From a virus, in IMG/VR virus record IMGVR_UViG_3300027872_000004, positions 1-64,000 of that record: 64,000 nt of DNA; one strand, given 5' to 3'. The position numbers and the translations under genes are program-made. Below, piece by piece: positions 50,716-64,000 of this stretch. The notes beneath the pieces are model-generated. The model was not told where the DNA came from, did no database searches, and saw only the letters and a program-made list of their open reading frames with translations. Within the stretch, counting starts at the first letter, position 1; each line of letters begins with the position of its first letter.

Positions 50716-50970
50716 ATGGAAATTAGGATCGAGTCAGGCATCCCGATCCCAAAAGAGCGTCCGCAATTCAAATCTCACATCGAGAAGATGGAGATCGGAG
50801 ATTCATTTCGGGTGCATGTCGAACACTGGACTTCGCTTCGGAACGCAGCAAGCAACATGAACAAACGTACCGCGAAAAAGTTCGTTGTTCAGAAAGTGAA
50901 GGAGCCAATCAATCCTGACAGGAAGACCGGCGAGAAAATTGAGTTCGTCAGGATCTGGCGTAAATTTTAA
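50716..50970 (+). CDS. Small basic protein
   Basis: 84 residues from ATG 50716. 'MEIRIESGIPIPKERPQFKS' and 'RTAKKFVVQKVKEPINPDRK' are basic and beta-rich; the pattern 'GIPIPKERPQFKSHIEKMEIG' is one I recognise from small phage proteins. Ends 4 bases before the ncRNA candidate. Confidence 0.55.
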   Translation: MEIRIESGIPIPKERPQFKSHIEKMEIGDSFRVHVEHWTSLRNAASNMNKRTAKKFVVQKVKEPINPDRKTGEKIEFVRIWRKF

Positions 50971-50974
50971 TTAT

Positions 50975-51152
50975 GGAGCGGTGACGTAGCGGCAACCGTG
51001 CTGGTAGGGAGATTAGAAATCTGGACGTTTTTTTCGTTTTCTTCCAGGTTAGGGGCAGCCCCCCATTACTCCCATCGACCAGTGGACCTCTCGGGCGATG
51101 ACGCATTGCCGGATACGAAGTCCACGCCCAGGTTCAACTCCTGGGACGCTCC
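50975..51152 (+). ncRNA. Large tRNA-like cloverleaf RNA candidate
   Basis: No ORF above 30 codons with a ribosome site was found in 50971-51288. By eye, a five-way cloverleaf forms. P1: GGAGCG (50975) with CGCTCC (51147-51152). D-like arm: ACG/CGT (50984-50999) with loop TAGCGGCAAC. Long arm: CTGGT/ACCAG (51001/51078) continuing as GGGAG/CTCCC (51007/51069), with inner hairpins CTGGA/TCCAG and GGGG/CCCC. Variable arm: TGGAC/GTCCA (51083/51120), containing a 7-bp stem (51094-51110). T-like arm: CCCAGG/CCTGGG (51127-51145) with loop TTCAACT. Positions equivalent to U8, A14, GG18-19, A21, T54, T55, C56 and A58 are present. It is not a normal tRNA: there is no clear anticodon loop or 3' CCA. Confidence 0.5.
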
Positions 51153-51288
51153 CACAGAATTGTCATAAACAACCGCATGGGCCCTGAAGGTCGCGAACAA
51201 GTAGGGGATGTGTCATGTGGAGTGAGGAGGTGGCTCCCAAGGTTGCGAAACTGAACGCCTCCAGATTCACCCACCAGGAGAAGCCACA
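51153..51288 (+). other. Region between RNA candidate and next gene
   Basis: No convincing gene. It contains an open frame of 25 codons (51177-51254), and a GGAGTGAGGAGGTGG stretch resembling a ribosome site without a following gene. It could be a 3' extension of the RNA or the leader of the 51289 gene. CCAGGAGAAG at 51274-51283 is the ribosome site of that gene. Confidence 0.4.
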
Positions 51289-51810
51289 ATGAAGTTTGAT
51301 CTGACCCGTACTACCGCCAAGTTCGGCGTATTCAACCCGCGAGAGGAGAAGAACAAGGGCAACGCATTCGATCTACCGTTCTCGGTGACGCTGGGATCTT
51401 CGATCCTGGCAATGCTCGCACCGACCACCAATGTCGATGGAGATGACCAGGCCCTGGCTGAGCAGTTGTTCTCTGAGGAAGGCCACGTCTGTCGGCCATC
51501 GATCAACCCGATTCACGTCAACAGGAAACCCGAGGGCGCGATCGTCACAATCTGGGACCAGGAAGATTTCGGAGATCCGCTTGAGCTGAAACCCTGCAAC
51601 CTGACTACGCTGAAGGCCGAGCTGCAAACACCCAACCAGGTTGTGCTGACCGGAAAGGTTCAATACTCTCAGTACTCAGATGCTGAGCTGGTCCGCATCA
51701 ATGCGCTCATGAACAAATCGTTCGACCTGCAAATCACCATCGAGCAACCGGATCTATTCGAGCACCCAGAGGGAGAAACCGAGGATAAGGACGAGGATCC
51801 CCAAGAGTAA
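51289..51810 (+). CDS. Unknown protein, possibly DNA-binding
   Basis: 173 residues (MKFDLTRTTAKFGVFNPREE). Beta-rich with 'LPFSVTLGSSILAMLAPTTN' and 'VTIWDQEDFGDPLELKPCNL', and an acidic tail 'EGETEDKDEDPQE'. Acid-tailed beta proteins in this position sometimes bind ssDNA, but an SSB exists elsewhere. SD CCAGGAG. Confidence 0.5.
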   Translation: MKFDLTRTTAKFGVFNPREEKNKGNAFDLPFSVTLGSSILAMLAPTTNVDGDDQALAEQLFSEEGHVCRPSINPIHVNRKPEGAIVTIWDQEDFGDPLELKPCNLTTLKAELQTPNQVVLTGKVQYSQYSDAELVRINALMNKSFDLQITIEQPDLFEHPEGETEDKDEDPQE

Positions 51811-51832: not shown

Positions 51833-52147
51833 ATGTCAGTATTTCATCCAGCCGCTAGGGCACAAGATCTCATCGATCGGCTAAAGTCTTTGACCAAGCC
51901 GATCGGTGAGGCTGAGATGAAAGATCTGCCGGCAGCATGGGCCGAGCTGGAAGATCTTTTGATCATGATCGCCACGTCACGAAAACCAAGACTGGAACTC
52001 CAGCGAAAAGCTGATACCCTTGACTGCGTTATCGTCGCCATCGATAAACTACGGGACACGGAGAAAAGGGATGCTGATTCTGACCAGAACGCAAGGCGAA
52101 TCAATACAGATCGGGGAAGCAGTGACGGTGACAGTGCTGGGAGTTAG
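51833..52147 (+). CDS. Helical protein, unknown
   Basis: 104 residues. '[20 protein letters not shown]' and '[20 protein letters not shown]' are amphipathic helices. The C-terminus is Asp/Ser-rich. It overlaps csrA by 77 bases in another frame, suggesting co-translation. Confidence 0.5.
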
Positions 52148-52268
52148 AGGTGGGCAGGTGCGAGTAGGCATTGATGCTCCAAAGCAGATCAAGGTTCTCC
52201 GAACGGAACTGCTGGATCGCGCACGTTCAACTCCGAGCAGCGAGTCGTCTGAGTCCGATACCGGCTAA
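52071..52268 (+). CDS. csrA: CsrA/RsmA translational regulator
   Basis: 65 residues from ATG 52071. '[20 protein letters not shown]' and '[20 protein letters not shown]' match CsrA almost end to end: L4, R6, I14, V42 and R44 are kept; T7 replaces the common R7. CsrA dimers bind GGA motifs in RNA leaders to change translation. A phage copy could reprogram host or phage mRNAs. The last 80 bases overlap the outer spanin gene on the other strand. Confidence 0.85.
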
Positions 52269-53421: not shown

Positions 53422-53891
53422 GCGTAATCCTCGATCGTGATCCACACTTCGCCGTTCTCCACCTCGTCGATGATCTCCTGGTACAACCGCGTATAGGCAG
53501 ACACTGAACTCATCACCATGCCATCATCGAGGACGTTCGACTGCGCACCGTCACCGGTCAGAATGCAACCGTCAGTGTCCTTCTCGTAGTTCCCGTAGTG
53601 AATATAGACAAACGTGAAGTTGGGTACGTCCTGCAACCAGAGCATGCCGCGATGCCAGTCGAACTTATCGCTGTAGCGACCATGCATGCCGCCCTCAGTG
53701 CGCAACTTGATCCGGTAGCGCCCGGCCGGAATGCGCGTTTCACCTGGCACCTTCGGCTCGTTCGGCTGGTCCTCCATAGTGAAGTTGCGGAAGCTACGTT
53801 CATCCCCAACCTCGGCATCCCGGTCGATAACGTACATTGCACCGATCGTGCTTTCGTCGCCGGTCGCGATTCGTTTCACCAAAAGTTCCAT
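53418..53891 (-). CDS. DUF5675-family putative endolysin
   Basis: 157 residues. 'PGETRIPAGRYRIKLRTEGG', 'LWLQDVPNFTFVYIHYGNYE' and 'DTDGCILTGDGAQ' are the core of the DUF5675 family. Family members occur in phage lysis cassettes and T6SS loci and have been proposed to cut cell wall peptides; activity here is inferred from context (holin and spanins follow). Overlaps the polyvalent gene stop by one base. Confidence 0.7.
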   Translation of the reverse strand: MELLVKRIATGDESTIGAMYVIDRDAEVGDERSFRNFTMEDQPNEPKVPGETRIPAGRYRIKLRTEGGMHGRYSDKFDWHRGMLWLQDVPNFTFVYIHYGNYEKDTDGCILTGDGAQSNVLDDGMVMSSVSAYTRLYQEIIDEVENGEVWITIEDYA

Positions 53892-56800
53892 TACGATTGC
53901 CCCTCCAACGTCTTAACGAATCCCGCCCGAGGATTCTTTGGTAGCGAGCTGAGCAGCTCGGCCGTGTGATCCAGGCGCTGCTTGGCCAGGTAGTCAGTTC
54001 TTTGTTGTGGCGGCATATCGATCAGTGTTTCCTGAAGCGCCTCGATCTGTATCTCGGCCGCACCTGGTCGCTCCATCCAAGCGTCTTTCGCGTTCTCCAG
54101 TTTTTCACGGTACAGGTCGTTCAACTCACGACTTTTCTGCTCCGGAGTCATATCCTCGTCTTCCCACAGATCGGTCGTGTCCTTACGCAACTTCTTGATC
54201 TCATTGTAACTGGACTCCATTGCCTTGGATGCGTCCAGCACTTCCTGGTTGGTGTAGTTCGGATCGTACTTCGAGCCTTCCTCCATGAACTCATCGATCT
54301 CGTCGTCCATCTCCAGACGTTCCATCTGGTTCACGGCCCGCTCGATCTGCCTGGCGTTGTTCCGCACATCGTACATGATTTCCTCGAAGCTGCTCCTGGC
54401 TGGAACTTCTTCACCACGGTAAAAGCGTCCGACCAGTGGAATCTTACTCCAACGAAGTTCTGGCCTGGCTGGGTAATCGAACTGCTTCCGTACCAGGTCG
54501 TCGGACAGCATCATCACGTAGCCACCCAGGGTCGCCAGGTAACCACGCATCAGGTGTTCCATAAGCAACGGATTGCGCATGATGTCTGGAGAGAAGTTCG
54601 GCATCACTTTGGCCAGCTCCCGCATGCTCGGGCTGGTGCTTGATCGAAACACTAGTTCAGGCTTCACCTCTGCAATGTCCTGCATGTACTCCGGAACGAT
54701 CGGTGCCTGGAAGAAAGCGTTCCAGTTGGTGGTCGCCTCAAACAGCGGTGCAATGAACTGAGGTAAAGGAACGATCGTCTGCGGATTGAAGAAGTTGAAC
54801 ACCTCACCCAGCACGAACCACAGTCTATCGATCGCGACTCTGCCGGCGTCGTCCTCATTGGAGTAGTAGTACTCGAACATTCGCTCGACGCCTACACCAA
54901 AAACCATTCCCACCTCGAACGATTTCGGCAATCGCCAGTGTTTACCGTTCACCTTGAAGTGGACATACATATCCTTTTCTTCTGGTGGCAGAGCTTTGTA
55001 CCACTCCTCGTCCTTGTTCTTCAGCCACACGGCCAAGACCGCCATGGCATACAGCATCGACTTGGTAAAGGTAATGCCTGGCGCCTCCTGGAATCTCTGC
55101 CCGTAGCGAACCAGGCCCTGGATCCTGGCGTTAAGGAACATCACGCTCTGCGCGAAGAACTGCATAATCGCATGATCGCCGTGCTTGGCGAAATTCATGA
55201 TGTCCTTCGACTCCCAGACAGCCTCAGCCTTACCGGCACCAGCCTTGATCGCCGGGATGTAGGCACTACCAATACGATTCGCGTTCTCCGATGCAGCGGC
55301 GATGTCGTTGTAGAAGTGGAAGATCTTCCATGGCGCATCGAGGACTCTGTTCTTGAATCCTGTCTGTCGCAAGGCTCGCTTCATTGCCTTCACGGTCGAG
55401 ATAGGATCGTTGGCGTTGATATAGCCAGAATAGAAAGCGCCACCGGCAGCCATCATGGAAATCATCTCATCGGACTTGGTGAAAGCCTTCCATGCTCCAG
55501 TCGCTGCCGACCAGGGCCTGGGCAACTTCGCATGCCGCGAGTTGACGAATGCCATGAAGATGTCCCGGAACCAGTTCGCCGCCATGAATCCTGGTGTCAG
55601 GGTGATCATTGACGTGCCGAGGCGCTTAAACTTACGTGGAAGCCACATGCCCATGCGGCCCATAAGACTTGCAAATTTCTTCTCGTTGATCGCAGTCAGC
55701 GATCGAAGCAATGTTTCTTCGTGAACCTCGAACCACTTCTTCTTGCCGTTGTAGAGGACCGACATAAAATTATCACCCTGCGGTCTCTGAAGGGTCCACA
55801 TCTTCTGCATGCCGGCCAGTGCTTCGGGAGACATCGCCTCCCAATCAACAGCAGCCTTCCGCAATTTTCGTTTCAGCTCATCCATCGGGATGAACTCCTG
55901 CTTCATGAAATCCTGACCCTTGGCTGGCGTAATCAAACCAGTCTCTTTCAGGTTCTCTACAGCCAGTTGAGAGGCTTTGTTCTTCATCGTGGCTGTCGCG
56001 ATATGCTGGAAATTGATGATGATGTTTTCCAGAATGTCACCTAGCGGATGCTTGGATCCGAGCAGTCGCTTGATCGGCTGTGCCACGTTCGCGATACCTG
56101 GTCCGCCCATGCCGGCCCGCTTCGCAAAAGAGCCACCCATCTCGTCGGACTTGATACGATAGAACGGAACGTAGTCAGCCTGATCCCATAGCGGCCTGGT
56201 GTCCGAATTGAGAACACCAGCCTCCTCGGCCCAGTCCAGGAATTGCGTCTTCCAGTCATTGAAGGCATCGGATACTGTCTGAAATTCCGGGAACCGCTCA
56301 CCCAGTTTCAGAAGCTCATCGATTCGCTCCCTGGTAAATAAAGCCTCACGTCCTTCACGTAACAAACGATCAGCACGAACAGCGGCCTTCCAGTAGCCCC
56401 AGTAGGTGATTTTATCAGCGACAGGTTCCAGCACCTCCAGCAAACCTTTGCTGCCAGGCTTGATCCCAGTGATCGTTCCGGCGCCGACCTTCTCCCAGTA
56501 CGGAACACCGTGCGTCAGGAACACGAACATCTGTGAGTCCATGCTGGTGGTGAAGTGAGCTTGCTTGTAGGCATTGATCTCGGCCGGCAACTCATGACCA
56601 TGCGTCTGTTTGATGGCCCACTTCAGGCCGGAAAACTGATCGACCATGGCCTGTTCAATCTTGACCTGCTTTTCTTCGATCGCGATGACTTCGTTGATGC
56701 GCTGTTGCAACCGTTCGAGTGATCGAGGTCCTTGTGGTCCGATGTTTTTTTCGGCCCAGTTCAGTGCATCGTCGAGACCAGGATCCCCTGTTTTTTTCTT

Positions 56801-59800
56801 GCCGCGCTTATGGAATAACGGAAAACCTGAGCGAGCTGTTTCCTTGAGTTTATCGGTGAACTCGATCTCCCATGCCTCGTACCCCCAGGCCCGCTCTGAA
56901 GCACTCTTTAATGCCTCATCCAAAGCATTCTGAGCATCCTGTCTGTTCTGGTGATAGCCGCCCTGCAATCTGAATACATTCGGATCTTCTTCTGCTGGAA
57001 CCTCCGAGCCCCAAATACCACGATCCTCTGGTGCTATTACCGTATTTCCCCAGGCTTCCTCATACATTTCAGAGTTCACGCCACCACTGATATGTTTGAT
57101 CACTTCATCGGTGGTCAATCGTCTGACTCGTGCCTGCTTCCATCTCTCCCAATGCTTTCCAGGTTTGGTTCTTACCGCGAGCCCTTGTCTTTCAACTTGC
57201 TCACGGACACTTATCGAACCTTCAGATCCTGGGATCCAGGTATCGACAACCTTGGCCTTGAATTTCTTCAGGAACTTGTTGAGCATCTGTGGCGTGATGA
57301 CGTTATAGATCACCCTGGATCCGGTCAACCGCTTGCCACCACCGGAGGTCGGTATGAGAAGTGATTTCAGTCCAACATCTTCACCAGATACAAGTCCAGA
57401 ATCATCTTCATGCTCAAGGATAAACCTGGCTGCTCGATCACCAACGATAGTACGTAGATCCCTGCTGTTGGTTTCAATGACTCGACCACCAGCAGGATTC
57501 ACGAGAATAATTCTGAAGGACCCTCGTTTGATTTCCTTTGGTTTGCCGGTGAACATATCAATGGTCTTGTCGTCCGCCATGAAACCTTCTTTATTGAATC
57601 GAAGCTCATCTACCGTTTCAGCCCCAGACCAGCGAACACCGTGCACCTCTCCCTTCGAGAGATAAATCCGGTCATGGCCGTTCCGAACGGCATCAGCGAT
57701 CAGGCCCTTCATCACCAGAAGTTGCCAGTCCTTCTCGAATGGCGCGAAGGTCATGCCGCTTTTGAATCGTTCGTATCTCTCCTTTGACTCGTGAAATTCA
57801 AGGACCCTTGCACCCATATCTGTATACATCGTCTTATCGATAGAAAATGTAAACGGCTTGACCTCAGCCCTTTCAAAATCCTCTTTATTTACTACGTGTT
57901 CACCTGCCCTCGATTGAGTGGACAGTTTATCCATAACTTCAGACAATCGAATCCACAGCTCAGGAATCCTGCCAGCATAAGCTCCACCCCAGGAACGATC
58001 TTGAGTTTCTTCGTGAATGAGAGCCTTATCCCATAGATCTTTGTTCAGCGTTTTGCTGGTTACTTCACGATATCTTTTTGCTCGCGCTTCCTCGTTGGTT
58101 GGATCTAACAGTTTCTTGGAAGCAGCACTAAGAACCTCCATCTCTATTTCATTGAAGGTTGTCCCAGTCCAATCAGGCAGGTCTCGTGGTTTCCTTTTAG
58201 CGTTCCTGTACTTCCCGACCTTATTGGCGAAATTATCTTCGTATAGATCTTGCATCCATCCGGCTGGATCATCACCTGTCGCGTTAAATTGCTTAACTGA
58301 CACTCCGTTATCCCAAACGAACTCCTTCATCTTCTCGTTGAACTCATCGACACTGATCAACTTCGCATCCAATTGTTGACCTGCCTCGCTCTTGCGCGCT
58401 TTTCGGTAGGCGGCAAAAGATAAATTCTCAATCTCTGTCAGGTCAGCATAAAATCCGTGGCTCTCGTAGATCTCATCTTGAATCTCAACCTGTTGATGTC
58501 CCAGTATCTCCCCACGTTTTGTTCTCGCGCCCGCGATATTCGAGCTGTACGTGCGAAGCATGCTTTGAGCAACACCAGTGTAAGCTCCGGTCACCAACCG
58601 ATCGACGAGCGTTGCCAACGGATCGGACATATAGTATCCCCAAGACCTGATGTCGCTCATCATTTTTTCACGATGATTTCGGAGTTCCTTGTAATCAGCC
58701 TCAGCCTTCTTCTTCCATCGATCTTGTTCAGTAGGATTACTGATCGCCTGATCCCTGGCTTCAATCAACATATCCGCTGGAGATGTTTCGTCCCAGGCAT
58801 CGCCACCACCGATCGTCCCATCAGGATTGACGTAATCTGGATCGTACTCATGCTCAGCATGAACCTCCTCCAGTTTGCTTTTTATGGCATCGCGAATCTC
58901 CTGGTGCCAGTCAGACTGAATCTCGTCAACGTAGTACGCATCTTCTCCGTTTAGATCCTTTCGAGTATCCAACCTGGCATGAGCAACCATGTCTTCCTCC
59001 TCGCCCCAATGCCCGGAACTGCCGTATCCACCTCCTCTTGGATTGGTCCACTTGAACAGCAGTTCCTGATAGTCCTCGCCGGTCGGTTCCAGCATGTACT
59101 CTTTCCAGCGACCACTTGCGCCTTCCTGATTGGCTTCATCTGCCGCTTGAACAGCATCATCAAAATTACTGTAGTAACCGTGGTCGGCACCTTCCTCCAT
59201 ATGGGTAACAACGAAGTCGCCATCAGAATCAGTCTGGATGGAGTAATTGCCTGAGTACCAGCTTTTCTGGGTGTTCTTTTCAACCCACTCGTCACGTTCC
59301 TCCGTATAATAATCTTGCTCAATGTCCTCCCTGGTGCGATCTTCGGCCTCCTCCTTCATGGTTTCTTCAGTGGTTCCATCCCAATTGTCAGTTTCGTAAT
59401 TCAGTTCCTCAAGATCCATATCTGCTTCTTTAGCAATATCTGGATCCGCTTCGAGATCAGGATCCCATCCATGCTCGGAGTGAACCTCGATCAGCATATC
59501 CGGGTAAACACTCCCCCAATGAAACTGCTCGATGGGTTCCCAATGTTCGTACCAGTCATCTTCATCTGGCGCGGTCTGTTCATCCGGACTGTCTTCGTCA
59601 AAATATAGATCTTCTGCTTCGCCACCTGGCTGGTACATCTCGATGCCCACACCATTGCGAGTAATGAACGACAAGATAGTATCCTTCGGAATTTTCTTCG
59701 GACTGGTCCGACCGAACGCTTCCAGCTCACCGTTCATTGATTCGTATATTTCTTCATCAACGGCAAGGTCACGCTGCTCATTGACCGGAAGGAACTGGAG

Positions 59801-62800
59801 ATAGTCGTTATCTTTTATCCATTCATCTTTGATCCTTTTGGCTTTAGCATTGTATTTAGCAGCCAACTCCGCTGTCTCACGATATTCTTGATTGAATGCT
59901 TCAAGTTGAAGTTTTCTCGCTTTTTCCCTAATAGCACCATTCTGTTCACCAAGCCTGCGATGCTGCACAAGCAGGTCGTATTTATCCCTGGGGAAGACAT
60001 CCTTCAAAGCAGAAAATGTTTCGTCATGATGGCCAAAACCACCAGCAGCAGCATAGAAAACATCGTCCCAGGTGATATCTTCCATGAACTCTTTCAGGCC
60101 CATCCAGTCCAGCTCGGACTGTTTCATTTTGCCCTTGTTGATCTGGCCCTTGACGAACTGCATCCAGCCATCGGCTGATGCTGCTTTGGTGTCAGAATCG
60201 TTGAAGGCAGTCCACGCTTGGGAGAAATAATACGGCGACGACATATGACGTAGCCGACCGCGCTGTACCGATCGTTTGTAACCGCTTGCGGACTGCACGA
60301 AGTTGCTCGACTCAGCGATCATCGACATGATCTGCCCATCCGTGAACATCGTCGCCTTGCCTGTCATATAGCGAATGAAGTTCTTCAGGGCCTTGACGAT
60401 CTCATCGAGCAGCTTCCTGGCCTGGCTCTTAACCTTGCGTCCCGCCAGAACTCGCTGAGCGGTATGAGCGATGAACTCCTCGGCGGCTACCCGACGCTCA
60501 TTGATGTTGTTCCAGTCGTGTCCGTACAGTTTTGCTATCTCGCGCACTTCTTTCGGGAATGATTCGGCCACCTTGTCCATGACCGCATCGAACTCCCAAG
60601 GCTTGATCGTTTGCCTGAGCCCGAAGTGACCGATGACCTCGTGCAACATCGTCTCGATTGCCTCAGCCGTATCGGTGACATTGTTCGCGATGATGTAGAT
60701 GTCATCCATGAACGCGCCCTGGTCATAGATCCCGGTGGTATTGCGACGATCCTCCTCGGTCTCCAAGGTTAATCGGAGATGTCTCGGAAGATCCTCGATC
60801 GATTGGACAACTCTGACCGGTGGCACAGTACGGAACATGCTGTAGATCGGACGAAGGACAGCCTGAATTTCATCGACCGTCTTTCCTCTGCCGGCGTTCG
60901 TTCCTCGGAATCGACTCAACTTGTCTGGCCGGCGATGGAAGTAGGTAGTGTTACGATCATGGAAACCAGGCATGCCGGAAAACGCTTGGTCTCTATTCGG
61001 CCCGAGTACAGCATCCAGGGCCCTGATATCTGTGTTGTCACCAAAAGTCAGCGCGTTCTTGGCAGCCTCCTGATCATTGGCAACGACAATCATGGCAGAT
61101 GCATTAGATTTTGAGACCGCCGCTAAAATTCTCCCGGCACCAGAAGTTGAATCTTCAGTACGTAAAAGTTTCCAGTCATCAACAGGAACGATCGCAACAA
61201 CCTGGTGTTTTGTATTCAGCAAAATCGCATGCTCACCAGGAGAGGTTGCCCTGGCAGCAGCTACAGTATCCTTGGGAGATTCGATTCTCCTGCCAGGTTT
61301 GCCAAAGTTCCTGAATCGTCTCTCGACAACGCTGATGTCTTCCGTTCTCGCCAATGGTTGAATGCTGATACTCCGACTTGAAGCAGAATGAGGAGCGAGA
61401 TATGAAGCCTTGCCGCCAGGAGCAACCACGACCGATCCCTTAAAATCTATTCCTGTTTTATCTAATTGCCTGCGAAATTTTGCCGCTAACCTCTCGTCTG
61501 CAAGGCTCTGACTCCCCTCTCCGCTAGGATGGTTGTGCACCATCCACACATTTTTGGCGCCATCAATCGCAAAGACAGATCCCAGGTAGATCGGTATCTG
61601 CGCTGAAGCTGCATCAGTTGCACCAATTGAATGACGAATAACGGACAGCACGTTTTGCTGTTCATCGGTGACCACAGCCATCAGGCTTTCCTGGGCCTCA
61701 CGCCTCAACGGCGCGACCAGGTGAGCAACCTGCGAAGCATCGGTAACCTTCTTCAGCCCAGACCTGAAGATTCCAGTTTCAATCAGCTTGACGTTCGGAC
61801 TGGCAAAATCATTCGGATCTGCTGCCAGGTTTACCGTGTAGACCTGTTGCTCAACCTGATTCGTTCCAGGAACATTCGCCCCCAACTGAGACCTGTGAAT
61901 CTCATAACGAACATCGCCTTCCTCAACGGATTGTGGATGAAGCTCGTCCCTGCTTTCTGGTTTGGCGGTCTCAGATGCCAGGGTCTCAGTGATCTGCACC
62001 TCGTCGATCGAACTGACGTTGCCATCGGTAACCGCCATTCGTTTGGTGTTCGCCGCATCCAGCCACTCGCGAAGTTCCTTGGTGGTCATGGCGACAGCGG
62101 ACCCGAGAAGCGCACCACCGTCATCGTAGTTGCGGCGATACCCTTCCATGGCTTCCTCGGTGGTCCGGTAGCCAAGCATCACCTTATGCTCGTCAAAGTT
62201 GTTCGAGCCGATCGGCCTATCAGGATCCTTCTTCTGGTTGACGATCAGTGCACGGCCGCTGTCCGGGTACTCACCGACAAATACATCCACCTGGTCAAAG
62301 CCGCCTTTGCCATCTCGCTCTTTGCTCTCGGTGCCCTTGATGTAACCGTAGTCATCCTGCATGGTGATGGACCACGGCTTCCCACTTTTATCCACTCCAG
62401 AGCGTTCCATTCCCTTGGCGGTCTCAATCGTGACCGGCAGTGAATCGATCCGCATGTGGGCCTTACGGTAGGTGCCAGCTTCCTTAATGGCCTCGGACTT
62501 CGGCTCCTCTACCCGACGAGTAGCTGCTTTTTGACGAGCCCGAATCGATCGACGTGGCTCATCCTTGTCAGAGCGAAAGGTCTCGGTTGGGCTGATCTCA
62601 TCTTCCTCGGCCGTAATCGCGACTCCTTCGCGCACCATGTCGTACTTCTTAATCAGCGCATCGATGGCCGCAAACATCGCATTGGTGACCTGAATGCCTT
62701 GTGTTTTCCTCCTGGCCTGGATGTTCTGGAACATCGCGCCTATTCCTTCACCCTCCAGAAATGCATTCTCGATCGCCATATTGGTGATCAATGGATAGAC

Positions 62801-64000
62801 GCTCTTAACTCGATCGATGAAATTTTTTGCCCATTCCGCATCGACCATATTTCTGGCTGTAGGCTTTTTCCCTGGAGTTGGTTTCGCTCGCGCATGTCGT
62901 TGCAATGGAGGCATCGAACCAGCCAAATCAGCAATCGACTCAGGGATCTCTAGTTCTGTTTTTGATGAATCGTTTTTCGAGATCTGATCACCGGCATACA
63001 GGCGCACACTCTGCCTTTGCAGTCCTGGCTCTCTCCGCTTGTATGTTTCCTCCTCCCTGCCAGAAGGTGAGACACGCTGATACCTGATAGCATCATCATC
63101 AGGCTCTCCCTGGGCCGCTTGTTGTGCCAGCTCCAGGATCACTTTGAGTTGATCTTCCAGAGACGAGACCTGCTTGTGACCTGCCGGTAATGCTTCGATT
63201 TGATCAGTGATCTCGATAATCTGGTTGTACTGTTCTTCACTGAGGCCAGCCCATCTCTTTGCCAGGCTGTCCTGGATAGCTGGATTCAACTTGGAAAAGC
63301 CAGTTATCTGTTCGACTGGCGGTTTCATGAACTCAGGACGCAAAACCCTGTCGCCTTCCAAGATAATTTCCTCGACCTCCTCATCGACCTCGATGCCAGT
63401 TTCAGCCTGGCGAAGCTGCTCAATCAGTCGCTTACCTTTGGGCAAGATCATGACCCGTTCTTCCTCACCGATGAACCGGCCGTATTTCTCGTTGGTCAGG
63501 GTGAACTGCTCATCGATCGTCAGTGGATCTCCCCTGCCGGCCCGCTCCAGCAGATCCAGATCCACGTCCAATTTATTCAGACCCATAGCCTTGGCTTCAG
63601 CCTCGGAGATCTCGCCGGCCTCCTCAGAGGGCAGGACTGTCTTTCCGCGCTTCGCCTTCTTCGGATCGAGCTTCAGGTCTGCCTGGGTGGTGTCGCGATA
63701 CAGCGGGTGCGTGAGTGATGCCAGGGAGCCGCCAACACCGAACCCGATGATGGCCGAACGCTTCAGCATCTGGAGACCTTCCTTGGTGGTGGTCATCTCC
63801 AGCAGGGCCTCACCGAAGCTCATCTCCTTATCGATGATGCCCTTGGTGTACGCTTCCTGAATAAGCTGCGTAAGCGGCTCCTGGAGAGCCTCAGCGCCGC
63901 CTGCCTTGAGAACCCGCGCCAAGAACCTACCGCCCTCCTTGGTCAGTATGCCCAGTGGTACACGTTCTGAGACGATCTCAGCAGCAGCATTGACTATCCC
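53891..64000 (-). CDS. Giant polyvalent virion protein (5' end outside window)
   Basis: At least 3369 codons, open to the right edge. In order of reading: helical N-terminal part; a PPase-like domain 'MQDDYGYIKGTESKERDGKGG', 'QVDVFVGEYPDSGRALIVN' (about 62,200-62,400); a RadC/JAMM domain 'HNHPSGEGSQSLAD' (61,517-61,555); an HExxH metallopeptidase 'LHEVIGHFGL' (60,626-60,655) beside 'RRVAAEEFIAH'; long charged 'DEIQSDWHQE'-type domains (58,900); and C-terminal LPD38-like helical sequence 'MTPGFMAANWFRDIFMAFVN'. Multi-domain polyvalent proteins of this type are packaged in the head, delivered with the DNA and processed in the cell. It is the largest gene here and directly precedes the lysis cassette. 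Confidence 0.8.
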   Translation of the reverse strand, partial: GIVNAAAEIVSERVPLGILTKEGGRFLARVLKAGGAEALQEPLTQLIQEAYTKGIIDKEMSFGEALLEMTTTKEGLQMLKRSAIIGFGVGGSLASLTHPLYRDTTQADLKLDPKKAKRGKTVLPSEEAGEISEAEAKAMGLNKLDVDLDLLERAGRGDPLTIDEQFTLTNEKYGRFIGEEERVMILPKGKRLIEQLRQAETGIEVDEEVEEIILEGDRVLRPEFMKPPVEQITGFSKLNPAIQDSLAKRWAGLSEEQYNQIIEITDQIEALPAGHKQVSSLEDQLKVILELAQQAAQGEPDDDAIRYQRVSPSGREEETYKRREPGLQRQSVRLYAGDQISKNDSSKTELEIPESIADLAGSMPPLQRHARAKPTPGKKPTARNMVDAEWAKNFIDRVKSVYPLITNMAIENAFLEGEGIGAMFQNIQARRKTQGIQVTNAMFAAIDALIKKYDMVREGVAITAEEDEISPTETFRSDKDEPRRSIRARQKAATRRVEEPKSEAIKEAGTYRKAHMRIDSLPVTIETAKGMERSGVDKSGKPWSITMQDDYGYIKGTESKERDGKGGFDQVDVFVGEYPDSGRALIVNQKKDPDRPIGSNNFDEHKVMLGYRTTEEAMEGYRRNYDDGGALLGSAVAMTTKELREWLDAANTKRMAVTDGNVSSIDEVQITETLASETAKPESRDELHPQSVEEGDVRYEIHRSQLGANVPGTNQVEQQVYTVNLAADPNDFASPNVKLIETGIFRSGLKKVTDASQVAHLVAPLRREAQESLMAVVTDEQQNVLSVIRHSIGATDAASAQIPIYLGSVFAIDGAKNVWMVHNHPSGEGSQSLADERLAAKFRRQLDKTGIDFKGSVVVAPGGKASYLAPHSASSRSISIQPLARTEDISVVERRFRNFGKPGRRIESPKDTVAAARATSPGEHAILLNTKHQVVAIVPVDDWKLLRTEDSTSGAGRILAAVSKSNASAMIVVANDQEAAKNALTFGDNTDIRALDAVLGPNRDQAFSGMPGFHDRNTTYFHRRPDKLSRFRGTNAGRGKTVDEIQAVLRPIYSMFRTVPPVRVVQSIEDLPRHLRLTLETEEDRRNTTGIYDQGAFMDDIYIIANNVTDTAEAIETMLHEVIGHFGLRQTIKPWEFDAVMDKVAESFPKEVREIAKLYGHDWNNINERRVAAEEFIAHTAQRVLAGRKVKSQARKLLDEIVKALKNFIRYMTGKATMFTDGQIMSMIAESSNFVQSASGYKRSVQRGRLRHMSSPYYFSQAWTAFNDSDTKAASADGWMQFVKGQINKGKMKQSELDWMGLKEFMEDITWDDVFYAAAGGFGHHDETFSALKDVFPRDKYDLLVQHRRLGEQNGAIREKARKLQLEAFNQEYRETAELAAKYNAKAKRIKDEWIKDNDYLQFLPVNEQRDLAVDEEIYESMNGELEAFGRTSPKKIPKDTILSFITRNGVGIEMYQPGGEAEDLYFDEDSPDEQTAPDEDDWYEHWEPIEQFHWGSVYPDMLIEVHSEHGWDPDLEADPDIAKEADMDLEELNYETDNWDGTTEETMKEEAEDRTREDIEQDYYTEERDEWVEKNTQKSWYSGNYSIQTDSDGDFVVTHMEEGADHGYYSNFDDAVQAADEANQEGASGRWKEYMLEPTGEDYQELLFKWTNPRGGGYGSSGHWGEEEDMVAHARLDTRKDLNGEDAYYVDEIQSDWHQEIRDAIKSKLEEVHAEHEYDPDYVNPDGTIGGGDAWDETSPADMLIEARDQAISNPTEQDRWKKKAEADYKELRNHREKMMSDIRSWGYYMSDPLATLVDRLVTGAYTGVAQSMLRTYSSNIAGARTKRGEILGHQQVEIQDEIYESHGFYADLTEIENLSFAAYRKARKSEAGQQLDAKLISVDEFNEKMKEFVWDNGVSVKQFNATGDDPAGWMQDLYEDNFANKVGKYRNAKRKPRDLPDWTGTTFNEIEMEVLSAASKKLLDPTNEEARAKRYREVTSKTLNKDLWDKALIHEETQDRSWGGAYAGRIPELWIRLSEVMDKLSTQSRAGEHVVNKEDFERAEVKPFTFSIDKTMYTDMGARVLEFHESKERYERFKSGMTFAPFEKDWQLLVMKGLIADAVRNGHDRIYLSKGEVHGVRWSGAETVDELRFNKEGFMADDKTIDMFTGKPKEIKRGSFRIILVNPAGGRVIETNSRDLRTIVGDRAARFILEHEDDSGLVSGEDVGLKSLLIPTSGGGKRLTGSRVIYNVITPQMLNKFLKKFKAKVVDTWIPGSEGSISVREQVERQGLAVRTKPGKHWERWKQARVRRLTTDEVIKHISGGVNSEMYEEAWGNTVIAPEDRGIWGSEVPAEEDPNVFRLQGGYHQNRQDAQNALDEALKSASERAWGYEAWEIEFTDKLKETARSGFPLFHKRGKKKTGDPGLDDALNWAEKNIGPQGPRSLERLQQRINEVIAIEEKQVKIEQAMVDQFSGLKWAIKQTHGHELPAEINAYKQAHFTTSMDSQMFVFLTHGVPYWEKVGAGTITGIKPGSKGLLEVLEPVADKITYWGYWKAAVRADRLLREGREALFTRERIDELLKLGERFPEFQTVSDAFNDWKTQFLDWAEEAGVLNSDTRPLWDQADYVPFYRIKSDEMGGSFAKRAGMGGPGIANVAQPIKRLLGSKHPLGDILENIIINFQHIATATMKNKASQLAVENLKETGLITPAKGQDFMKQEFIPMDELKRKLRKAAVDWEAMSPEALAGMQKMWTLQRPQGDNFMSVLYNGKKKWFEVHEETLLRSLTAINEKKFASLMGRMGMWLPRKFKRLGTSMITLTPGFMAANWFRDIFMAFVNSRHAKLPRPWSAATGAWKAFTKSDEMISMMAAGGAFYSGYINANDPISTVKAMKRALRQTGFKNRVLDAPWKIFHFYNDIAAASENANRIGSAYIPAIKAGAGKAEAVWESKDIMNFAKHGDHAIMQFFAQSVMFLNARIQGLVRYGQRFQEAPGITFTKSMLYAMAVLAVWLKNKDEEWYKALPPEEKDMYVHFKVNGKHWRLPKSFEVGMVFGVGVERMFEYYYSNEDDAGRVAIDRLWFVLGEVFNFFNPQTIVPLPQFIAPLFEATTNWNAFFQAPIVPEYMQDIAEVKPELVFRSSTSPSMRELAKVMPNFSPDIMRNPLLMEHLMRGYLATLGGYVMMLSDDLVRKQFDYPARPELRWSKIPLVGRFYRGEEVPARSSFEEIMYDVRNNARQIERAVNQMERLEMDDEIDEFMEEGSKYDPNYTNQEVLDASKAMESSYNEIKKLRKDTTDLWEDEDMTPEQKSRELNDLYREKLENAKDAWMERPGAAEIQIEALQETLIDMPPQQRTDYLAKQRLDHTAELLSSLPKNPRAGFVKTLEGQS

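What the first reader, a model, noticed from the sequence alone, without database searches (positions are those of the whole stretch)
50975..51152. tRNA-shaped noncoding RNA with giant anticodon and variable arms
Seen: six nested or adjacent stems in tRNA cloverleaf order (P1 6 bp, D-like arm with A-G-C-GG loop, 80-nt anticodon-position arm, 42-nt variable-position arm, 6-bp T-like stem with TTCAACT loop). Positions corresponding to U8, A14, G18-G19, A21, T54-T55-C56 and A58 hold the conserved bases needed for the tRNA elbow. The 318-nt region has no clear gene. Known: tRNA-like elbows occur in tmRNA and viral RNAs. Inference: this is a functional RNA that mimics a tRNA elbow but lacks a decoding loop or CCA end. 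It might bind tRNA-handling proteins or the ribosome, or, given several GGA motifs, the neighbouring CsrA. I know of no described RNA with this exact layout.
Basis: partly seen in the sequence, partly recalled or inferred. Interest (0 to 1): 0.85.

Follow-up and report, generated by a model that had tools for sequence, protein, structure and literature searches.

The report
Phage tRNA-shaped RNA with folded arms
A small group of uncultured phages carries a conserved RNA gene that keeps the body of a transfer RNA but has its anticodon loop replaced, and its variable arm enlarged, by folded arms that differ from phage to phage, so it cannot decode and probably works by passing for a tRNA.

Summary
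At 50975-51153 (+) lies a tRNA-type cloverleaf: a 6-bp acceptor stem, a D arm with A14-G15...G18-G19, a 5-bp anticodon stem (CTGGT/ACCAG), a long variable arm and a T arm (CCCAGG TTCAACT CCTGGG). A 72-nt folded insert replaces the anticodon loop. ARAGORN and Rfam call nothing. Four distinct copies exist: the window, L001, L002 (identical in L003 and L004) and L005. Each sits 4-5 nt after the same 84-aa gene and upstream of the same 173-aa gene. The tRNA core is almost invariant, while third codon positions of the flanking genes are only 46-79% identical. The anticodon insert (40-74 nt) and variable arm (28-45 nt) differ in sequence and length but keep their stems, with compensatory changes, and look exchangeable. 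The RNA is not a decoding tRNA, tmRNA or Y RNA; a real YrlA with an Ro60 gene in a distant relative shows the contrast. The nearest phage precedent is T4 RNA C, still without a function. Best reading: a non-decoding class II tRNA mimic, cut from mRNA by host tRNA enzymes, that engages a tRNA-body-binding host protein. The structure is secure; the function is inferred.

The parts
50975..51153 (+). whole tRNA-like RNA, acceptor 5' end to the conserved C after the acceptor 3' strand (179 nt)
   Evidence: homologues share both ends of this block; 5' end lies 4-5 nt after a stop codon in all copies
50975..50980 (+). acceptor stem 5' strand GGAGCG (pairs with 51147-51152)
   Evidence: invariant in all copies
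50984..50999 (+). D arm: stem ACG/CGT, loop TAGCGGCAAC with A14 G15 and G18-G19
   Evidence: loop differs at two positions between the window and relatives
51001..51005 (+). anticodon stem 5' strand CTGGT (pairs with ACCAG 51078-51082)
   Evidence: invariant in all copies; adjoining 26-44 pair is G-U or G-C
51006..51077 (+). 72-nt insert in place of the 7-nt anticodon loop
   Evidence: 40, 51 and 74 nt in relatives, different sequence, always folded
51007..51073 (+). insert helix GGGAG 51007-51011 / CTCCC 51069-51073
   Evidence: two compensatory pair changes in L001
51018..51050 (+). insert hairpin 1
   Evidence: predicted fold; a sequence-unrelated hairpin in the same place in L001, L002 and L005
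51052..51064 (+). insert hairpin 2 (GGGG/CCCC)
   Evidence: predicted; counterpart in L005 only
51083..51126 (+). long variable arm, ending in conserved CACG
   Evidence: 28-45 nt in the four copies, two compensatory pair changes; L001 and L005 share one version
51127..51145 (+). T arm CCCAGG TTCAACT CCTGGG
   Evidence: invariant but for R57
51147..51153 (+). acceptor 3' strand CGCTCC plus conserved C at the discriminator position; no encoded CCA
50716..50970 (+). 84-aa ORF directly upstream, weak match to phrog_10287 (unknown function)
   Evidence: 67-69% identical in relatives and syntenic
51289..51810 (+). 173-aa ORF downstream, no known family
   Evidence: 78-83% identical in relatives
52077..52268 (+). 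CsrA homologue, syntenic in all relatives
   Evidence: PF02599 E 9e-20; synteny

Best explanation
A phage RNA gene that makes a non-decoding tRNA mimic with a class II layout (long variable arm). Shown by sequence: a complete tRNA body under strong constraint, an anticodon loop replaced by a folded insert, and a variable arm that changes freely. Inferred: the RNA is cut from the polycistronic transcript by host tRNA-maturing enzymes (RNase P at the 5' end, 4-5 nt after the upstream stop codon) and then modified on its T arm. Also inferred: it acts in trans by occupying a host protein that reads the tRNA body and elbow rather than the anticodon. Candidates are SerRS or another class II synthetase, RNase P, or a tRNA-targeting defence factor. 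The arms keep it off the ribosome and may tune which protein it binds.
For: Core differs at 0-2 of 32 and 0-3 of 34 positions while flanking third codon positions are 46-79% identical. Every helix is kept, with four compensatory pair changes in insert and variable arm. Elbow residues are invariant. The RNA is present once in each of the five related contigs that span the locus and in the window, and no other T arm of this kind occurs in those contigs. No anticodon loop, no ARAGORN call. A precedent for processing: a tRNA acceptor, T and D arms with RNA inserted at the anticodon stem are recognised and processed as tRNA in E. coli (PMC3753655). YrlA, which mimics the same arms, is a substrate of TruB and DusA (PMC8394870). 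Serine identity depends mainly on the variable arm and not on the anticodon (PMC9976931).
Against: No transcript, processing or binding data. The G7.A mismatch, 13-nt acceptor-T stack and C at position 73 are unusual and could hinder tRNA enzymes; E. coli tRNA-Ser has G73. Core helices are nearly invariant, so covariation support comes only from the two variable arms. Only four distinct sequences are available. No target can be named. The cis-acting reading fits the position equally well.
Confidence: 0.45

Rival explanations
1. Cis-acting element: the tRNA-like fold is a processing or translation-control signal in the operon. RNase P and 3' processing would separate the 84-aa and 173-aa messages, or a protein would bind the fold to control the 173-aa gene.
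For: Always lies between the same two genes, 4-5 nt after one stop codon; in L002 and L005 it ends just upstream of the next gene's ribosome-binding site.
Against: The window and L001 have a further ~130-nt element between the RNA and the 173-aa gene, so the spacing is not fixed. Simple processing would not need a conserved D arm and anticodon stem, nor two long folded arms.
Confidence: 0.25
2. Natural tRNA scaffold: the tRNA body protects and displays a payload, and the exchangeable arms carry the activity (base-pairing or protein binding), with different phages carrying different payloads.
For: Arms are wholly different between copies and look swapped: L001 and L005 share a variable arm (26 of 28 nt) but not the insert, while L002 and L005, closer in their genes, have unrelated variable arms. 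Engineered tRNA scaffolds work this way.
Against: No long complementarity of the window's arms to its own phage (best 12 nt, low complexity or near chance). Host unknown, so host targets were not tested. Free variation of spacer arms would look the same.
Confidence: 0.18
3. tRNA gene with an intron, or a decayed tRNA, that once decoded or still decodes after splicing.
For: Anticodon stem, D arm and T arm are in normal order.
Against: Insert is 33-67 nt longer than a loop and varies between phages, too short for the group I introns known from bacterial and phage tRNA genes (own knowledge). ARAGORN finds nothing with introns of 0-200 allowed, nor, at its default threshold, when seven-base loops are substituted. 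A decayed gene would not keep this core unchanged.
Confidence: 0.05
4. CsrA sponge acting on the neighbouring CsrA.
For: A csrA gene is syntenic in all relatives; several GGA triplets in the window.
Against: No GGA is kept in an unpaired loop across the four copies; the shared GGAs are in the acceptor stem and at the T/acceptor junction (own reading).
Confidence: 0.04

Closest known systems
T4 RNA C (species 1 RNA, rnaC) of Tevenvirinae
   Same: Phage stable RNA of similar size with a tRNA-type T arm at the 3' end, a hairpin just before it and a very large arm before that; function unknown.
   Different: Acceptor pairing is only about 3-5 bp, no canonical D arm, the T loop is altered in some relatives, in T4 it lies beside the tRNA cluster, and there is no sequence relation.
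Bacterial Y RNA, YrlA (RF02553)
   Same: Non-decoding RNA with D, T and acceptor arms and a long arm in the anticodon position; found in the distant phage relative L185.
   Different: YrlA is circularly permuted: ends in the long stem, acceptor closed by a loop, T arm before D arm. It partners Ro60/Rsr. Here the ends are at the acceptor, the order is normal, and no TROVE gene is found in seven contigs.
Class II tRNA (Ser/Leu/Tyr) and tRNA-Sec
   Same: Cloverleaf with long variable arm; the 13-nt acceptor-T stack recalls tRNA-Sec (own knowledge); G1-C72 and G2-C71 as in most bacterial tRNA-Ser.
   Different: No anticodon loop, G7.A mismatch, C at position 73, no tRNA-Sec-type long D stem.
tmRNA
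   Same: tRNA-like domain plus extra RNA, not a decoding tRNA.
   Different: No reading frame or tag, no pseudoknots seen; keeps D stem and anticodon stem; ARAGORN's tmRNA search is negative.
Engineered tRNA scaffold
   Same: Acceptor, D and T arms kept, RNA inserted at the anticodon stem.
   Different: This one is natural, also has an enlarged variable arm and differs among phages.

Membership tests
tRNA | cloverleaf with acceptor, D, anticodon and T stems and elbow residues | tested here: met
tRNA | 7-nt anticodon loop | tested here: not met
   40-74 nt insert in all copies; ARAGORN negative
tRNA | CCA end, aminoacylation | not testable with these tools
   CCA not encoded; addition or charging needs experiment
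Y RNA (YrlA, RF02553) | permuted order T arm, closed acceptor, D arm, with ends in the Ro-binding stem | tested here: not met
   order is acceptor-D-anticodon-variable-T; Rfam negative; contrast with L185
Y RNA (YrlA, RF02553) | Ro60/Rsr gene nearby | tested here: not met
   no PF05731 in G000 or G001-G006, though the contigs are fragments
tmRNA | tRNA-like domain with tag-encoding frame | tested here: not met
   ARAGORN tmRNA negative; no frame conserved across copy lengths
T4 RNA C-like stable RNA | sequence or structural homology to rnaC | tested here: not met
   no canonical D arm or long acceptor in rnaC relatives; blastn of the window region against phages finds no T4-type match
T4 RNA C-like stable RNA | accumulates as a discrete stable RNA during infection | not testable with these tools
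   needs northern blot or RNA-seq
CsrB-type CsrA sponge | repeated GGA in hairpin loops | tested here: not met
   GGA not kept in loops across copies (own reading)
intron-bearing tRNA | spliceable intron in the anticodon loop | tested here: inconclusive
   ARAGORN with introns negative; no known intron type recognised by Rfam

The most novel reading that the evidence does not exclude
A new class of phage effector RNA: a natural tRNA scaffold whose anticodon insert and variable arm are exchangeable modules under diversifying pressure, giving each phage a different binding face on one conserved tRNA body.
Probability: 0.17. Interest if true: 0.85.

Novelty: new variant of a known kind. Interest (0 to 1): 0.62.

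Why it matters
tRNA-like phage RNAs without a decoding role have been known for decades from T4 RNA C, whose function is still unknown. A second, unrelated and more canonical example, with clear comparative evidence of what is constrained (body) and what is not (arms), makes the question testable: which host protein is a phage deceiving with a tRNA body that cannot decode? It also shows that ARAGORN and Rfam miss such genes.

Tried and rejected
Rfam at gathering and permissive thresholds: only chance matches. ARAGORN with introns, and on cores with seven-base loops substituted: nothing at its default threshold. Near-exact D-arm/anticodon-stem patterns in 84,980 genomes and in IMG/VR returned many coincidental hits, but none had a T arm or a matching cloverleaf. 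Wider recruitment by the 84-aa and 173-aa proteins gave the same few contigs; the exonuclease gave distant relatives without this RNA. Roseobacter phage CRP-902 (nearest terminase among named phages) has no convincing tRNA-like site in the 50 kb read. The 173-aa neighbour matches no family and its predicted structure is poor (pLDDT 54), so no fold search was run. L006 holds only 104 nt upstream of the 173-aa gene and no T arm there; its contig ends, so presence is undecided. A class II tRNA comparison with an artificial Ser loop gave a short tRNA-Ser match that is partly built in, so I do not use it.

Full report
What is there. The stretch 50975-51153 on the plus strand folds as a tRNA cloverleaf. 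Acceptor GGAGCG/CGCTCC, U8, D stem ACG/CGT around a loop with A14, G15, G18 and G19, then G26, anticodon stem CTGGT/ACCAG, variable arm, and T arm CCCAGG-TTCAACT-CCTGGG. The seven-base anticodon loop is replaced by 72 bases that fold into a further helix (GGGAG/CTCCC) carrying two hairpins, and the variable arm is 44 bases. No CCA is encoded, but a C follows the acceptor in every copy. The acceptor-T stack has 13 bases on its 3' side with a conserved G7.A mismatch. ARAGORN and Rfam call nothing. The unconstrained minimum-energy fold of the window RNA pairs the D region differently; the cloverleaf costs 4.6 kcal/mol more before any tertiary contacts.

Is it more than chance? Yes. The window RNA folds better than shuffles (z -2.5; -2.7), as do L002 (-3.0) and L005 (-4.7); L001 is weak (-1.2). 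A descriptor requiring acceptor, D loop with GG, anticodon stem, T arm and T loop finds one site in the real window and one in 150 shuffled windows. Across 1.4 Mb of held sequence, which includes the copies' own loci, it finds only these RNAs and one site in L066 that looks like an ordinary tRNA.

Homologues. The 173-aa neighbour led to six viral contigs. Five span the locus and all five carry the RNA, in three distinct versions; with the window that makes four distinct copies. L006 begins only 104 bases upstream of the 173-aa gene and shows no T arm there. Gene order around the RNA is the same in all, and the RNA begins 4-5 bases after the stop codon of the 84-aa gene. The first 32 bases differ at 0-2 positions and the last 34 at 0-3, while third codon positions of the two flanking genes are only 46-79% identical. 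The anticodon insert is 72, 40, 51 and 74 bases and the variable region 44, 28, 45 and 28 bases (window, L001, L002, L005). Every helix is kept, with compensatory changes at two pairs of the insert helix and two pairs of the variable arm. The invariant helices add no covariation support. L001 and L005 share a variable arm but have unrelated inserts, while L002 and L005, closest in their genes, have unrelated variable arms. The arms therefore look exchangeable.

What it is not. It cannot decode as it stands. It is not a Y RNA. A real YrlA occurs in a distant relative (L185, RF02553, 39.3 bits, E 2e-7, below the gathering score) next to an Ro60/TROVE gene; there the tRNA-like body is permuted and closed at the acceptor. 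In our phages the order is normal and no TROVE gene is seen in the seven contigs. It is not a tmRNA. A CsrA sponge is unlikely: csrA is always nearby, but GGA is not kept in loops. An intron-bearing tRNA is unlikely.

Nearest precedent. T4 RNA C has a canonical T arm, a hairpin before it, a large arm, and weak acceptor pairing without a D arm. It is described in 2022 as of unknown function (PMC9697503). The resemblance is of kind, not of descent.

How it most likely works. Selection preserves the tRNA body and tolerates very different folded arms in place of the anticodon. That fits an RNA recognised by its tRNA body. Engineered RNAs built this way are processed and protected in E. coli (PMC3753655), and YrlA is modified by TruB and DusA (PMC8394870), so host tRNA enzymes could plausibly mature this one. 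Which protein is engaged is not known. A class II layout with G1-C72 and G2-C71 makes SerRS one candidate, since serine identity depends mainly on the variable arm and not on the anticodon (PMC9976931), but C at position 73 is against it. A cis-acting role between the two genes is the main rival. A payload scaffold is the most novel one.

Limits. Only four distinct sequences, from one small phage clade of unknown host; no expression data; metagenome contigs could not be searched.

Noticed in passing
window 51160-51288; L001 3863-4000: A second noncoding stretch, well conserved between the window and L001 (GTGTCATG...GAGTGAGGAGGTGGCT...GAACGCCTCC, possible 7-bp stem GGAGGTG/CGCCTCC) but absent from L002 and L005. 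Folding alone is not unusual.
   Followed up: partly
L185 7448-8700; L184 7430-7850: Phage-encoded Y RNA (YrlA-like) directly upstream of an Ro60/TROVE gene, about 1 kb downstream of the same exonuclease gene as in our phages; in L184 the Y RNA remains but the TROVE frame breaks off early.
   Followed up: partly
L013 3710-3755: A T arm identical to this RNA's (CCACGCCCAGGTTCGACTCCTGGG) inside a minihelix GCGGC/GCCGC without the other arms, between genes, followed by a long GGC-rich repeat-like stretch.
   Followed up: no
L177, L174, L175, L176 (T4 rnaC and relatives): In T4 RNA C relatives the two hairpin loops TTTTTGACG and GCGTCAAC contain invariant complementary TTGACG/CGTCAA, a possible kissing pair.
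   Followed up: no
window 53891-63922 (-): A 3343-aa ORF, very large for a phage protein, with a stretch MVHNHPSGEGSQSL that recalls RadC/JAB-type metal sites (by eye).
   Followed up: no
L012 4703-5290 (exonuclease gene; also L002 and L009): The exonuclease-like ORF has a stop five codons before the homologous C-terminal end.
   Followed up: no
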